From a virus: a stretch of 22,413 nucleotides of DNA. Under the pieces are notes generated by a model. The model saw nothing but the letters and a program-made list of their open reading frames with translations. It made no database searches and was not told where the DNA came from. The stretch lies in IMG/VR virus record IMGVR_UViG_3300017733_001791, positions 1-22,413 of that record; one strand, written 5' to 3'. The position numbers and the translations under genes are program-made. This document shows, piece by piece, positions 4,498-9,770 of the stretch; the stretch's first letter is position 1, and the number at the start of each line of letters is the position of its first letter.

Positions 4498-4770
4498 ATG
4501 TTGCTCCCCGATCAGATCGCGCCCCGCGGCCTCACAAAGACCGATGCAGCCGCTTACTGCGGCTGTTCTGAGGACGCCTTCGACACATGGGTAAAGAAGG
4601 GCATTGTGCCGGGGGCGATCCCCGGCACGCAGCGTTGGGACCGCAAGGCGATAGATTGGTACCTAGACCGGGCCTCTGGTCTCCCGAGCCATACGACGGC
4701 CAGCGCGGCGGACGATGCGCTGGCAGCCTGGCAGGCTTCCAGACGGAGGGCTGTCAGCGTGACGCGATGA
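4498..4770 (+). CDS. Excisionase/AlpA-like helix-turn-helix protein
   Basis: This 90-residue protein starts immediately after the preceding stop (TAA-ATG). Residues 12-55 read as the small winged-helix 'HTH_17' type seen in excisionases and AlpA regulators: LTKTDAAAYCGCSEDAF forms the helix-turn-helix, followed by DTWVKKGIVPGAIPGTQRW as the wing and DRKAIDWYLDR as the closing helix. The C-terminal 35 residues are Ala-rich and basic. Such proteins bend DNA to direct excision or regulate promoters. It is separated from the integrase by the cargo block, so either role is possible. It converges on the leftward Ntn-hydrolase-like gene with a 20-bp gap. Confidence 0.75.
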   Translation: MLLPDQIAPRGLTKTDAAAYCGCSEDAFDTWVKKGIVPGAIPGTQRWDRKAIDWYLDRASGLPSHTTASAADDALAAWQASRRRAVSVTR

Positions 4771-4790: not shown

Positions 4791-5900
4791 CTAAGCGCTC
4801 GGGGCGGTCGATGGCTTTATCTCACCCTGCTGATAGGAGCGAATCTGCTCTCGCATCCAGTCGCCAAGCGATTTTCTAAAAGCTATATCCACTCGGGACC
4901 CTTGCATATCGACGTGAAATGGGCGAGGGCCGTTTGCACAAAAGCGGACGTTCGTCATGCTCCATAGGGATTCGCCTGCGCGGCAATAGGAAAAATGCGT
5001 ACACAAACGATCATACTCGAAATTGCCGAGCAACGGCTTGCGAAGCACTCCGTCTGAGATTAGCGGACGAATAACAACCGTGTCGTCCTGCGCAACAGAA
5101 AATATTCGCCTGTCGCTAGTCTGTTCGCAATCGAGGGCGACGCACTCCAAGTCAGGCCCGTTATATCGGTTTAGTAGCAACCGTGGTACCCAGGTCAATC
5201 CGGCTTCGGGATTTGCCTCATCGTATCTGAAATGAACGAAGGCTATTTTATCTAGTTTCACAAACGCATCGGCCGCGCGATAGCACACTTCGATAGTTCC
5301 TCCCCATCGTTCGAGGAGGGTTTGTTGCGTGTATAGCTCTCTGCCTAACGACTGTGATGCGACCGCCAGGGCATCCCCCAAGACTTCCGAGATAGTATTA
5401 GCTGACGGGTCGGTGATTGGATCAACACTATCCAACTGGGCAATCGTGCTCTTGAAGTAATCTGCTCCGGTTCCGGCAACGCGCACATTTTCGAATCGTC
5501 TCAGATTGGCTGCTTCAGCGCCCGCCCATATGTAGCTGATTTGGGGACCTTCGGAGACCATCGCGATGCAACTGAAATTCTGGTCAACGTTCGCAAGGAT
5601 AATCTTGTTTATTTCACTCGCGGAAGTGCCGAACTGATCTACGTGAGACTTGATCTCCCTTGCCAGTCCATAAGCCTGCACAAGCGGACCTGACCACGCG
5701 AACACCACCGAGTTAGTTATGATGTTCACCTTCTGGCGTAGTCCCGCCACGGACACTCCGAACGTATCCAGTAGCTGCGCGCTCAACGGCCCCGGTGCCG
5801 GTAATCTCGACGTAGCGGATTGCTTTGCAAAATCTGTGAGTAGGGCGTCCCCACATAGAAGAGGGACATTCGCTCGACTGAAGCCAAAAATGAGTGTCAT
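4791..5900 (-). CDS. Proteasome-like Ntn-hydrolase candidate (cargo)
   Basis: This is a 369-residue cytosolic protein with no signal or membrane segment. The N-terminus MTLIFGFSR..PLLCGD resembles proteasome beta/HslV/Anbu-type Ntn hydrolases, where Met removal exposes a catalytic Thr1. Counting Thr2 as 1, the Asp of CGDALLTD falls exactly at 17, as in proteasomes. Lys57, in RQKVNIITNSVVFAWSG, matches the 'K-hydrophobic strand-(A/S)G' signature but is displaced by a roughly 23-residue insertion relative to proteasome Lys33. The remaining 300 residues are longer than a bare proteasome subunit and unrecognised. The family call is inference from this pattern. The gene points left, is 110 bp from the upstream small gene and lies in AT-richer cargo. 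A lysogenic-conversion or defence role is suggested by location only. Confidence 0.6.
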   Translation of the reverse strand: MTLIFGFSRANVPLLCGDALLTDFAKQSATSRLPAPGPLSAQLLDTFGVSVAGLRQKVNIITNSVVFAWSGPLVQAYGLAREIKSHVDQFGTSASEINKIILANVDQNFSCIAMVSEGPQISYIWAGAEAANLRRFENVRVAGTGADYFKSTIAQLDSVDPITDPSANTISEVLGDALAVASQSLGRELYTQQTLLERWGGTIEVCYRAADAFVKLDKIAFVHFRYDEANPEAGLTWVPRLLLNRYNGPDLECVALDCEQTSDRRIFSVAQDDTVVIRPLISDGVLRKPLLGNFEYDRLCTHFSYCRAGESLWSMTNVRFCANGPRPFHVDMQGSRVDIAFRKSLGDWMREQIRSYQQGEIKPSTAPSA

Positions 5901-6009
5901 CTCAAACGTTGGTCTGTGGGACAGTAGTTCAACAGCGCCTTCACGGCCTCGCGCGCGTCACCGCCGCAAGCCGCAGTTGCATGATCGCCGGCCGTTTTCA
6001 CGCTTTTGC

Positions 6010-6396
6010 CTATCCCCGTGGTACCCGCTGCAGCGTCAGCTGCTTGGGCCTGTGATTGCTTCGTTTTTTGACTATCCGGTACTTGTGTCGGATATCGTCA
6101 AGTAACCCATCAACTTCATTTTGGATTCGTAAGGTAGGTTCGGCGCTGATCGCTATCGCGGTAACATGCCCATCATCGTGGACCACCACGGTAGCAACTC
6201 GGCCCATGCCTTTGATCAACTCTTCTGCTTCGCGCTCGCTGATTTCTGGCTTCGTTTCCATTTCGACAGTTTTCCCAGTGGCCGCGTCGACGTTCCAAAA
6301 GGCACCGAGCGTCAAACGTGCCGATTTAAACGCTCTTTCTCTTAGCCCGCTTTTGAAGGTAAATTGCAGCCTTCTCTCGTAGACGGGCACCATCAC
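6010..6396 (-). CDS. Hypothetical small protein of cargo block
   Basis: At most 128 residues. The ATG at 6396 would overlap the upstream gene by 71 bp and has no clear ribosome site. A TTG at 6315, 10 bp after the upstream stop, is an alternative start giving 101 residues, beginning LTLGAFWNVDAATGKTVEM. The core is alpha/beta: a helix EREAEELIKGMGRV, strands ATVVVHDDGHVTAIAIS, then a helix IQNEVDGLLDDIRHKY and a basic C-terminus. No family recognised. The base composition is AT-rich (24 of 60 G+C in 6061-6120), unlike the structural genes. It lies between the membrane-protein gene and the Ntn-hydrolase-like gene, all leftward, suggesting one operon. Confidence 0.55.
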   Translation of the reverse strand: MMVPVYERRLQFTFKSGLRERAFKSARLTLGAFWNVDAATGKTVEMETKPEISEREAEELIKGMGRVATVVVHDDGHVTAIAISAEPTLRIQNEVDGLLDDIRHKYRIVKKRSNHRPKQLTLQRVPRG

Positions 6397-6868
6397 TTAA
6401 GTAAAGATAGTCTGCGGCTTTTGCTATACGCCACGGTTCGATGTGGCTCACTTTCAAACCCCGCTGTTTCATTGCGGCTTTCACCTCTTCCTTCGCAAGA
6501 TACCTGCAGATGGTTCGTAGCTCAGGAGAGATCGTAGGTTGCAGATCGTCAGTTGGATGATCCTTGTTTGCCCAATATGAAGGTTCCTCCATTGCACGCA
6601 GCGTACTCGCTTCCCGCTCAACTCGCTCGATCCACCATCTGTTTCGATCTTCCGCAATCTGACGAGAAAACAACCAAAGAAAAAGGACAACGATTAGGAA
6701 CGCGGCGATACGTAGCCCTACCGCCGTTTCCTTAAACCAAAACATCGGGTTGAACTGCAGCACGTCGAGCAAAATAACAAGCGGTGCCGCAACTACTGGA
6801 AAAACAAAGCAGAGCACCGCGAAGATAGTGACGGGCGCTCCAAGCCGCTCGTATAGAAATCGTTTCAC
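6326..6868 (-). CDS. Two-helix membrane protein (cargo)
   Basis: This 180-residue protein starts at GTG 6868, about 30 nt after a predicted extended -10 promoter (6907-6912, minus strand). Two membrane segments are visible, at about residues 11-35 (VTIFAVLCFVFPVVAAPLVI) and 49-68 (GLRIAAFLIVVLFLWLF), with a short positive N-terminus. The remaining 110 residues are a charged cytoplasmic domain with helices around RNRWWIERVEREASTL and ICRYLAKEEVKAAMKQRG and a very basic end (QKRAKRKSV). It is the first gene of the leftward cargo operon. A phage-encoded membrane anchor next to two soluble proteins is a layout seen in exclusion and defence modules, but no specific function can be named. Confidence 0.65.
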   Translation of the reverse strand: MKRFLYERLGAPVTIFAVLCFVFPVVAAPLVILLDVLQFNPMFWFKETAVGLRIAAFLIVVLFLWLFSRQIAEDRNRWWIERVEREASTLRAMEEPSYWANKDHPTDDLQPTISPELRTICRYLAKEEVKAAMKQRGLKVSHIEPWRIAKAADYLYLSDGARLREKAAIYLQKRAKRKSV

Positions 6869-6906
6869 AATGATCTCAAGGAACTGCCTGCAAAAACCTT
6901 GATCCG

Positions 6907-6912
6907 ATTATA
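6907..6912 (-). promoter_or_regulatory. Predicted extended -10 promoter of the leftward cargo operon
   Basis: On the minus strand the sequence TGATATAAT gives a perfect -10 hexamer with the TG extension. No good -35 is seen: TTGTGG lies 20 bp away, which is normal for extended -10 promoters. Transcription would begin near 6900, leaving a leader of about 32 nt before GTG 6868. The promoter lies in the divergent gap between the membrane-protein gene and the PIN-like gene. Confidence 0.55.
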
Positions 6913-7058
6913 TCATTACGTTGCCCAAATCGCCACAATCGGGGAGTTTGGAGCATTTCGCTTTTTTCCGACAGGGCTTGTGGCGGAAATTCGCTGGCCC
7001 GACTATATTCAGCTCGCTTTCGCTATGCCGTTTTATGACCTGGGATTTCCCCCTCATG

Positions 7059-8195
7059 GACCTGAACAACGCAGCGATGTCGGTATCGTTTTGTCCGGAG
7101 ACGGGCGAGCCGATGGTTCGCGTTCAAGAGTCCCCACGTGACGATGGACGCTCCGGCAGATCGGTTACGTTCGCGGGCGGAAGCCTCCGTCCGCTCGGGT
7201 ACGCGGAACTGCTTCAAGCCAATCCCGGCAACACAATATCTATTCCAATTGACCTGGACGACGCTCGGCTTCTCGATACCAACATCGAAGGCTTGGATGA
7301 AAGCGTAAAGTACACGGCAAAGGCACCAGTGTTTGAGAGCCACTTCACTTCGCGAGCGATTGGCCTTGTCAAGGGTGGTTGGTTGCCGCCCGCTCTTGCC
7401 GCGAGCAACAACACCACCATTTTGATAGACAGAAACATCGTTTCACAAATTGTTGGCCGCTTCGACGGCGGCAGAGCGGTGGGCAGTGATCCCGACTTTC
7501 TGGACTTATTTGCTGATCGGCCGCTCAAGATCAGTCCTGTACTATTCGCTATGGAAGGCAATACGCGAGCCACTCCTACACCGGAGCAAGTGCGGGGCCA
7601 ACTCGACGAATTCATAGCGAAGTTTCGGGCCGCGCTTCCGGCGACGAAGTTAGTTGTCGACTCTAACGTTGAAAAAGGCATCCTCGGGTCGATTGAAGAC
7701 ACACGAGCAGGTTTTGCAAAAAGACAGAAATTCCTAATGAGCGTGGCTCCGCGCCTTGTCGCTCCGGTCGCTAGAGCGAAAGTTCCCGCGCGAAGGGATG
7801 AGGTACTGAGTATAGCCGATCAATGTGGGGTTGCGCGCGGTTCACTCGTTGTGCTCGCTGCTTTGAGCGTGGTGTTTGTTGCCAACGGGGCCAGTCCTGC
7901 AAAGAGACTGCTGAAAATCAGGGCCGAATATCGTGATGAGGACGCCTATAACGCGTTGGTCGACCTGCGCTCGCTTGAGATGCTGATTTATGTGTTCGCA
8001 CGTCTCCCGGACTTGCCAGCGATGCTATGCACGGCAGACAAGGACCTGGCCCTCTTCTGGGTGGGGATTCAGGCGTCAAATTTCGAGAAAAAGGGCGCTG
8101 GGGTTAGCTGTGACTTGTTACCAATAGACGCGCTGTTGCCCGGCTTCGCCAATGAATGGCCGAACATATCGGGAGGTTCGCAGTTAGCCGATTAA
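7059..8195 (+). CDS. PIN-like domain candidate nuclease (cargo)
   Basis: A 378-residue protein from ATG 7059. The frame extends upstream to TTG 6921 and ATG 7035, but none has a strong ribosome site and the upstream part has coding-unlike composition; a weak TATATT at 7004-7009 also argues for a start after 7030. Acidic residues are spaced as in PIN-fold RNases: Asp124 in TTILIDRNIVSQ, Glu166 in VLFAMEGNT, Asp302 in YNALVDLRSLEML and Asp327 in LCTADKDLALFW. The C-terminal CTADKDL strand-helix is especially PIN-like. The N-terminal 110 residues are unrecognised. No antitoxin-sized partner is adjacent. The stop overlaps the integrase stop tail to tail (TTAA). PIN assignment is inference; this could also be a different Rossmann-like fold. 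Confidence 0.6.
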   Translation, partial: DLNNAAMSVSFCPETGEPMVRVQESPRDDGRSGRSVTFAGGSLRPLGYAELLQANPGNTISIPIDLDDARLLDTNIEGLDESVKYTAKAPVFESHFTSRAIGLVKGGWLPPALAASNNTTILIDRNIVSQIVGRFDGGRAVGSDPDFLDLFADRPLKISPVLFAMEGNTRATPTPEQVRGQLDEFIAKFRAALPATKLVVDSNVEKGILGSIEDTRAGFAKRQKFLMSVAPRLVAPVARAKVPARRDEVLSIADQCGVARGSLVVLAALSVVFVANGASPAKRLLKIRAEYRDEDAYNALVDLRSLEMLIYVFARLPDLPAMLCTADKDLALFWVGIQASNFEKKGAGVSCDLLPIDALLPGFANEWPNISGGSQLAD

Positions 8196-9472
8196 GACTT
8201 TGCTTCTCCTACCGGCAGTGTCGCGGCTTCAATTGCCAAGACTGCCTCGCGTTTCTCCTCGAACATATGCCAGCGCGCGTACACGCCGGTAACGCCTTTA
8301 TCGTTGTGATTCAAAAGAGCCTTAACGTAGTCGACCGGCAGCCGAGCCGCCTGCACGATTGTCGCGGCCGTTCTCCGAAGGTCGTGAGGCGTGAAGGCTG
8401 CCAGCTCTTCGTCTTCAAGCAAACGACGAACTGCCTGACTCATTGAGTGGCGCGCAAGCACACCGACGCTCTCGAAGCGGCTGGCAAACACGGGCCTATC
8501 CTCTTTGTCCTCACCCTCATCCGGCTTGCCAAGCTCCAAGGCCGCTTCGATCAACTTTACCGCCGTTGGGGAGAGGGGGACCGTATGCTCCGCCTTCTTA
8601 TTCTTCGTCCGCACAGCCGGAATGATCCAATGCGGCTTGTCGCCATTCAGGCCGTGAAGCTCGGAACGCATCATGCCCGCGACTTCGCCGGGACGCTGGG
8701 CCGTCAGCAATACGACTTTCAGAGCCAGACGCGTCCCGTCCGTGATGCCTGCTTTCTCATCGTCGAGGATGGCAAAAAAGGCCTTCAGTTCGTCGAGCGT
8801 CAGCACGCGATCCTTCTCGACTTCCTTGCCGCCGACCTTCTTCATGCCGTGCAGGAAGTTTTCGGTCAGAATCTCCCGGTCGTTCGCGTAACCCCACATG
8901 GTGCGGATGACAGACTGCGTCCGGTTGGCCGATGAGGGCGAGGCCTTGGCAATCTCTTCGAGGTGCTCCCTGATCTCGCCACGCGTGAGGGAGCCGACTG
9001 CGCGCTTCCCGAATTTGGCCTTCGGGCGCTTCAGATACCCTTCGTCGTTTTTCCAACTGCTCTTGCGCGGCGTTCCGGTGCGAGGGTCGATAGCCTTAAT
9101 GTGCTCGACGTACTGGTCGCACAGCTCGCCGAACGTCACCACGTCCTTGCGGTGCTCGACTAGCTGACGCTCTTGGGCGGCCTTGGGGTCCTCGCCCTGG
9201 CCGTTCCTGGCTTCTTCGCGGTCCCGGGCCTCCCGGGCGAGCTTCAGACTGAGGGCCGGGGCCTTGGCACCGTACAGCCCCAGCGTCACGCGGCGCATGC
9301 CCCCCTTGGCGCGGGAGCGGTAGGCGAACGTCCAACGGGCGACGCCGGTCGGTGGACAGCGCAGCACCAAGCCACCCCCGTCGCTCAGTTCGATTCGTTT
9401 GCCGGTGTCCTTGGCCTCCGCAATGGCCTTGTCGACCGCTTTTGCGGCGAGCTTGTTTCGACCCCTAGCCAC
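8192..9472 (-). CDS. int: Site-specific tyrosine recombinase, DUF4102 type (integrase)
   Basis: This 426-residue integrase starts at GTG 9472 behind a strong GGAGG 6-11 bases upstream. Order: an N-terminal DUF4102 arm-binding domain (about 5-100, with LSDGGGLVLRCPPTG and WTFAYRSRAKGG), a SAM-like core-binding domain (about 110-205, starting TFGELCDQYVEHI) and the catalytic domain. Visible active-site residues are Arg260 (TAQRPGEV), His363 and Arg366 (TPHDLRRTAA), His389 (LLNHND) and Tyr398 (GVYARWH), so the enzyme looks intact. It lies next to its attP, whose core is a tRNA-Pro 3' end, the usual target of this family. One pair of arm-type repeats lies 16-35 bases upstream of its start codon and could let Int or an accessory protein repress its own transcription. 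Confidence 0.95.
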   Translation of the reverse strand: MARGRNKLAAKAVDKAIAEAKDTGKRIELSDGGGLVLRCPPTGVARWTFAYRSRAKGGMRRVTLGLYGAKAPALSLKLAREARDREEARNGQGEDPKAAQERQLVEHRKDVVTFGELCDQYVEHIKAIDPRTGTPRKSSWKNDEGYLKRPKAKFGKRAVGSLTRGEIREHLEEIAKASPSSANRTQSVIRTMWGYANDREILTENFLHGMKKVGGKEVEKDRVLTLDELKAFFAILDDEKAGITDGTRLALKVVLLTAQRPGEVAGMMRSELHGLNGDKPHWIIPAVRTKNKKAEHTVPLSPTAVKLIEAALELGKPDEGEDKEDRPVFASRFESVGVLARHSMSQAVRRLLEDEELAAFTPHDLRRTAATIVQAARLPVDYVKALLNHNDKGVTGVYARWHMFEEKREAVLAIEAATLPVGEAKS

Positions 9473-9721: not shown

Positions 9722-9766
9722 CTGGGAGACTAGGGGTCGGAGGTTCAAATCCTCTCGCTCCGACCA
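9722..9766 (+). other. attP core: 3' half of tRNA-Pro(GGG)
   Basis: CTGGGAG is an anticodon loop with anticodon GGG (9724-9726). It is followed by the anticodon 3' stem ACTAG, variable bases, the T arm (GGAGG, loop TTCAAAT, CCTCT), acceptor strand CGCTCCG, discriminator A and the encoded CCA. The 5' half is absent: AATCA precedes the loop instead of the CTAGT needed to pair, and no CGGAGCG lies upstream. It is therefore the phage copy of the 3' end, which rebuilds the host tRNA on integration. Identity begins at or near the anticodon loop, marking the left limit of the strand-exchange region. Confidence 0.85.
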
Positions 9767-9770
9767 ACAA

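What the first reader, a model, noticed from the sequence alone, without database searches (positions are those of the whole stretch)
4791..8195. AT-rich cargo block: proteasome-like protein, small protein, membrane protein and divergent PIN-like protein
Between the tail-side genes and the integrase, a classic slot for phage cargo, sits a block with its own promoter, opposite orientation and clearly lower GC (24/60 in 6061-6120). The leftward group joins a two-helix membrane protein, a small alpha/beta protein and a 369-residue protein with a proteasome-like N-terminus. A divergent gene encodes a PIN-like candidate nuclease. A peptidase-like protein, membrane anchor and nuclease together would fit superinfection exclusion or defence. 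I know of no described system with this composition; seen here are the genes and motifs, while the system is inference.
Basis: partly seen in the sequence, partly recalled or inferred. Interest (0 to 1): 0.75.

Follow-up and report, generated by a model that had tools for sequence, protein, structure and literature searches.

The report
Lone proteasome relative beside defence-linked nuclease
A phage genome carries, in one cargo slot, a lone and very divergent relative of the proteasome and, next to it, a probable nuclease that elsewhere sits among anti-phage genes; the two almost certainly do not form one system, because in the relatives examined neither is found next to the other.

Summary
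The genes are real; the four-gene system is not supported. Gene A (4791-5900, -) belongs to a rare family (nine distinct members found here, 16-23% identical to A) in which T2, D18, K57 and G71, equivalent to proteasome Thr1, Asp17, Lys33 and the oxyanion-hole glycine, are conserved in all nine. Its profile finds HslV (E 5e-6 in one genome), beats every column shuffle in an HslV profile comparison, and 17 of its 19 PDB matches are proteasome subunits and one is HslV. So A is a divergent proteasome-like Ntn protein with a ~150-residue C-terminal extension. It has no Pfam, NCBIfam or PHROG name and occurs without B, C or D at every other site. Gene D (7056-8195, +) belongs to an unnamed family of >45 loci in proteobacterial genomes, plasmids and prophages, with four conserved acidic residues in PIN order, often co-translated with or near defence genes (Mokosh, Lamassu-like, Shedu, RES, Mrr, type IIG R-M). 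A, B and C are absent from all D loci. The PIN assignment is plausible but unproven. B and C have no relatives. Best reading: independent accessory genes dropped into the int-tail cargo slot; D probably defence, A a stand-alone Thr-Ntn enzyme of unknown target.

The parts
4791..5900 (-). Gene A, 369 aa: proteasome-like Ntn-hydrolase homologue. Core about residues 2-216 (catalytic T2, D18, K57; G71; G143-x-G145; G200-G201) plus about 150-residue C-terminal extension
6010..6396 (-). Gene B, up to 128 aa, no relatives, weak coding signal, start uncertain (overlaps C by 71 nt)
6326..6868 (-). Gene C, 180 aa, two N-terminal transmembrane segments (about residues 8-40 and 45-73), no relatives found
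7056..8195 (+). Gene D, 379 aa (an upstream TTG at 6921 would give 424): N-terminal beta-rich domain (about 1-110), PIN-like core (about 117-167 and 294-346, acids D125, E167, D303, D328) interrupted by a helical insertion (about 176-290)
8192..9472 (-). tyrosine integrase, convergent with D; neighbour that marks the cargo slot
   Evidence: recognised from the sequence; not scanned against a library
4498..4770 (+). HTH/excisionase-like small protein, other border of the cargo slot

Best explanation
The block is a cargo slot of a temperate phage that has collected independent accessory genes, not one four-gene system. Gene A is a stand-alone, divergent proteasome-like protein. Removal of Met1 would expose Thr2 as the N-terminal nucleophile, with K57 and D18 completing the Thr-Lys-Asp triad and G71 the oxyanion hole; the C-terminal extension probably selects the substrate. 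It would cut (or, like connectase, join) a specific host or phage protein without an AAA+ unfoldase. Gene D is a predicted PIN-like metal-dependent ribonuclease with an N-terminal beta domain, from a family that elsewhere is co-translated with or lies beside anti-phage genes; the likeliest role is a single-protein or accessory defence nuclease that the prophage uses against competing phages. Shown here: gene structure, homology, conserved catalytic positions, independent mobility. Inferred: catalysis, substrates, defence role, any link between C, B and A.
For: A: nine-member family with T2, D18, P34, K57, W69, G71, G143, G145, G200 invariant. Profile of the family finds HslV (next to hslU, L057) at E 5.1e-6 in one genome. 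HHalign of the family against HslV gives P 8.3e-5, score 38.0, against a maximum of 21.1 in 200 column shuffles and 11.4 reversed, in the right register (T2 on Thr1, GD on GD17, K57 on Lys33, G-T/S-G on GSG). 18 of 19 PDB matches at E up to 1 are proteasome (17) or HslV (1), best 0.023. A homologues stand as low-GC genes (36-51% against 50-74% around them) among unrelated housekeeping genes in five chromosomal loci. D: 38 GTDB loci, 10 plasmids, 5 viral contigs; D125, E167, D303 invariant and D328 nearly so in 32 sequences; model pLDDT 89.8; VapC, Rrp44, HARP and Utp24 PIN domains among structural matches at Z 2.5-4.6; 4-bp overlap with the upstream gene in 9 loci, 5 different partners; MkoB, LmuB-like, SduA, type IIG R-M, RES, Mrr neighbours. 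Independence.
Against: No confident fold for A: the single-sequence AlphaFold model failed (pLDDT 35), and its relatives came from sources that the tool does not admit. The position before G200 (Ser169 in the proteasome, inferred) is W/Y/F/S in the family, so catalytic competence is not proved. Each single PDB E-value is marginal. Anbu gives no match. D has no significant Foldseek match (best E 0.09), PIN rows are mixed with HUP-fold rows of equal Z and a PIN profile gives no sequence match. D's defence neighbours were hand-picked, so enrichment was not measured. The window's host genome is not held, so a local operon of C, B and A cannot be excluded.
Confidence: 0.72

Rival explanations
1. 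The four genes are one new defence or superinfection-exclusion system: C anchors the complex at the membrane, A is a protease that activates or degrades, D is the nuclease effector.
For: Shared low GC and position in one slot; divergent gap of 187 nt between C and D; C has two transmembrane segments.
Against: A, B and C absent from all D loci; D, B and C absent from all A loci; A occurs alone in chromosomes.
Confidence: 0.06
2. C, B and A form a three-gene unit (membrane protein, small protein, proteasome-like enzyme), and only D is foreign to it.
For: Same strand, C and B overlap by up to 71 nt, B and A 109 nt apart; similar low GC.
Against: No other A locus has a relative of B or C; B and C have no relatives in plasmids or IMG/VR; the 109-nt gap has backbone GC of 61%.
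Confidence: 0.2
3. A is a catalytically dead or non-peptidase member of the fold, for example a scaffold, inhibitor or protein ligase.
For: Proteasome-like homologues include the ligase connectase and many uncharacterised forms (PMC8665760); the Ser169-equivalent position is not kept.
Against: T2, D18, K57 and the glycines are kept in 9 of 9 members at 16-23% identity to A, which is what selection for catalysis looks like.
Confidence: 0.25
4. D is not a nuclease of the PIN fold but another Rossmann-like (for example HUP-type) enzyme.
For: Cyclodipeptide synthase and tyrosyl-tRNA synthetase rows have equal or higher Z; no PIN sequence match.
Against: Four conserved acids in PIN order after strand 1, a mid helix, a late helix and a T-x-D turn; the VapC row runs from model 119 on chain residue 1, which would put D125 on catalytic Asp7 (inference).
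Confidence: 0.2

Closest known systems
HslV (ClpQ), bacterial proteasome-like peptidase
   Same: Met-Thr start without propeptide, GD17, K33, G-x-A-G, GSG motifs in register
   Different: A is twice as long, has a ~23-residue longer D17-K33 segment with an invariant proline and a C-terminal extension, and no hslU beside it
Proteasome-like homologues of Fuchs, Alva and Lupas 2021 (PMC8665760), especially those with a C-terminal domain (RPC, DAH)
   Same: Divergent, scattered, some phage-borne, no AAA+ partner, same triad; DAH also occurs in Proteobacteria, Cyanobacteria and phages
PIN-domain defence proteins, e.g. one-gene system DS-3 of DefensePredictor (PMC13092281)
   Same: Single gene without antitoxin, PIN core split by other structure
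   Different: Relation of sequence unknown; D's relatives were not found in E. coli by DNA search
Mokosh, Lamassu and Shedu defence systems
   Same: D homologues lie next to MkoB, LmuB-like and SduA genes
   Different: D itself matches no PADLOC model convincingly and occurs without them

Membership tests
Proteasome-like family (Ntn hydrolases) | N-terminal Thr (or Ser) nucleophile directly after Met or propeptide | tested here: met
   T2 in 9 of 9 members
Proteasome-like family (Ntn hydrolases) | Asp17 and Lys33 of the triad | tested here: met
   D18 and K57 in 9 of 9, aligned on Asp17/Lys33 of HslV
Proteasome-like family (Ntn hydrolases) | Oxyanion-hole glycine after the Lys33 strand | tested here: met
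   G71 in 9 of 9
Proteasome-like family (Ntn hydrolases) | Detectable sequence homology to proteasome subunits or HslV | tested here: met
   E 5e-6 to HslV in one genome; HHalign P 8e-5, above all 200 shuffles; PDB list
Proteasome-like family (Ntn hydrolases) | Four-layer alpha-beta-beta-alpha fold | tested here: inconclusive
   single-sequence model failed, pLDDT 35
HslV | about 175 residues and hslU next to it | tested here: not met
   369 aa; no hslU at any A locus
PF00227 Proteasome (Pfam) | Model match over cut-off | tested here: not met
   no match for any of six members
Fuchs et al. subfamilies (DAH, RPC and others) | Clustering with the published representatives | not testable with these tools
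   representative sequences not held
PIN-like nucleases | Four acidic residues in order D, E, D, D | tested here: met
   D125, E167, D303 invariant and D328 at least 90% in 32 sequences
PIN-like nucleases | PIN fold | tested here: inconclusive
   PIN rows at Z 2.5-4.6 among other Rossmann-like rows; Foldseek not significant
PIN-like nucleases | Sequence profile match to PIN | tested here: not met
   Pfam none; HHalign to ten PF01850-type proteins P 0.06, wrong register
Known anti-phage defence systems (PADLOC 2.0) | Model match of A, B, C or D | tested here: not met
Proposed four-gene system | Conserved co-occurrence of the genes | tested here: not met

The most novel reading that the evidence does not exclude
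Gene A represents a mobile, single-gene proteasome-derived enzyme family that works without any unfoldase and protects its carrier (phage, plasmid or island) by processing one specific protein of an incoming phage or of the host, which would be the first immunity or counter-immunity function for a stand-alone proteasome relative.
Probability: 0.2. Interest if true: 0.78.

Novelty: new member of a known kind. Interest (0 to 1): 0.45.

Why it matters
Fuchs and colleagues listed 22 proteasome-like subfamilies and found no genomic context that hints at a function (PMC8665760). A family that moves as a single low-GC gene onto phages, plasmids (once inside a type I restriction locus) and chromosomes offers such a hint and a small experimental target. 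Gene D's family is an unannotated, widely shared companion of diverse defence genes and a good candidate for direct phage tests.

Tried and rejected
Sequence libraries Pfam, PHROGs, NCBIfam, PADLOC and phmmer of single proteins against PDB gave nothing convincing for A-D. IMG/VR scans for A, B (95) and C (94) and a GTDB pattern scan for A (38) found nothing. AlphaFold of A alone failed. Weak hit G695 is not an A relative: wrong region, 189-aa frame with a stop. Hit G416 turned out to be true HslV and was used as evidence. Foldseek of D against PDB and BFVD gave no significant match. DNA search of two D relatives in E. coli found none. Considered and dropped: that the ~200-aa genes upstream of D in several plasmids are a fixed partner; they belong to different families.

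Full report
What is in the sequence. The window is a 22.4-kb virus record. Tail genes run rightwards to about 4.8 kb, an integrase runs leftwards from 9472 to 8192, and a tRNA-3'-end-like sequence (about 9722-9767), the likely attP, lies beyond it. Between them lie three leftward genes (C 6868-6326, B 6396-6010, A 5900-4791) and one rightward gene (D 7056-8195). Their GC is 50-55% against 60-62% in the flanks, and 54 of the 55 lowest-GC 60-mers lie in the block. The claim of an own promoter has no support from the scan.

Gene A. No library names it. tblastn against plasmids found two distant relatives, in Oscillatoria (E 2e-9; the gene lies between hsdS and hsdR of a type I restriction locus) and in Candidatus Tenderia (regions). 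Profile searches of about 1,480 proteobacterial genomes (samples partly overlapping) added six distinct sequences (G012, G150, G561, G1219, G1270, G1286) and met the Tenderia copy again (G916), so the family is rare, about one genome in 200. Members are 16-23% identical to A, yet T2, D18, P34, K57, W69, G71, G143, G145 and G200 are identical in all nine; one member (G012) was used only to residue 200 because its frame breaks there. This is the proteasome pattern: Thr1, Asp17, Lys33, the oxyanion glycine and the GSG turn (active-site positions after PMC8665760, and HslV itself).

Homology of A to HslV was tested in three ways. The five-member profile picked HslV out of one genome at E 5.1e-6, with hslU next to it. 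HHalign of the nine-member family against 13 HslV sequences gave score 38.0 and P 8.3e-5, with a maximum of 21.1 in 200 column shuffles, 11.4 for the reversed profile and 16.8 for the unrelated D profile, and aligned the catalytic residues in register. hmmsearch against 177,635 PDB sequences returned 19 matches at E up to 1, of which 17 are proteasome subunits and one HslV, best E 0.023. Each is modest alone; together they make homology to the proteasome-like family secure. The fold itself was not shown, since the single-sequence AlphaFold model failed.

Context of A. In five chromosomal loci A relatives stand among unrelated, mostly housekeeping genes, at 36-51% GC against 50-74% around them; in G561 the relative follows a TerB/DnaJ-like gene. 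In G012 it follows a ParB-like gene. None of the A loci has B, C or D nearby. So A moves alone. B and C have no detectable relative; C is a two-span membrane protein and B is only marginally coding.

Gene D. D relatives are common: 10 plasmids, 5 viral contigs and 38 loci in Alpha-, Beta- and Gammaproteobacteria. In 32 aligned sequences D125, E167, N299 and D303 are invariant and D328 nearly so. The AlphaFold model is good (pLDDT 89.8) and shows a beta-rich N-terminal domain, then strand 1 ending in D125, helices up to E167, a helical insertion, a helix with D303, and a strand ending at the T-x-D328 turn, which is PIN order. VIA-align lists VapC, Rrp44, HARP and Utp24 PIN domains over residues 114-341 at Z 2.5-4.6, but also HUP-fold enzymes at the same level. 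Foldseek is not significant and a PIN profile does not align. PIN is the best hypothesis, not a settled fact.

Context of D. Neighbours vary, but D overlaps the upstream gene by 4 bp in nine loci with five different partners, among them Mokosh MkoB, a RES toxin-like gene and a DUF1810 gene, and lies beside LmuB-like ATPases, an HNH protein, an Mrr endonuclease, a type IIG R-M gene and Shedu. In three loci D is fused to the N-terminal domain of a gene that is its separate neighbour in a fourth. In two viral contigs D lies near tail genes (tape measure in L010, baseplate in L012), the same kind of slot as here. These neighbours were hand-picked, so this is an association by example, not a measured enrichment. 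A PIN protein with a split core and no antitoxin has been shown to defend E. coli (DS-3, PMC13092281), a useful precedent for how D could work.

Is it one system? They do not. The common low GC shows shared foreign origin or a shared slot, not shared function. A local C-B-A unit remains possible.

Verdict. Independent accessory genes in a phage cargo slot. [quoted passage not shown] whether it is one of the 22 published subfamilies could not be tested. D is an uncharacterised, probably nucleolytic, defence-associated family. The described four-gene system is very unlikely.

Noticed in passing
window 9722-9767: A tRNA 3'-half sequence (gactaggggtcggaggttcaaatcctctcgctccgacca) next to the integrase, with phage genes on both sides, looks like an attP; it suggests the record is the excised or circular phage rather than an integrated prophage.
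   Followed up: no
L005 5998-7179 (Oscillatoria plasmid NC_019763.1): The A relative lies inside a type I restriction locus, between hsdS and hsdR, 5 kb from a ThiF-type E1-like enzyme and a DUF6527 gene.
   Followed up: no
L003 5917-7062, L023, L024: A D homologue is co-translated (4-bp overlap) with a Mokosh MkoB-like gene behind a large AAA-domain gene in Aminobacter and Sinorhizobium.
   Followed up: partly
L031 9725-11137, L032, L034 9638-11113: D homologues fused in frame to the N-terminal ~55-residue domain of the gene that precedes D as a separate gene in L025.
   Followed up: partly
L016, L017, L019: D homologues directly downstream of (in L016 and L017 overlapping by 4 bp) a RES-domain gene in Sphingobium and Novosphingobium.
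   Followed up: partly
L059 7119-8161: The Mesorhizobium MAG copy of A is split by a frame change near residue 200, either a sequencing error or a dead gene; a convergent protein with an apparent HNH-type end and a ParB-like gene flank it.
   Followed up: no
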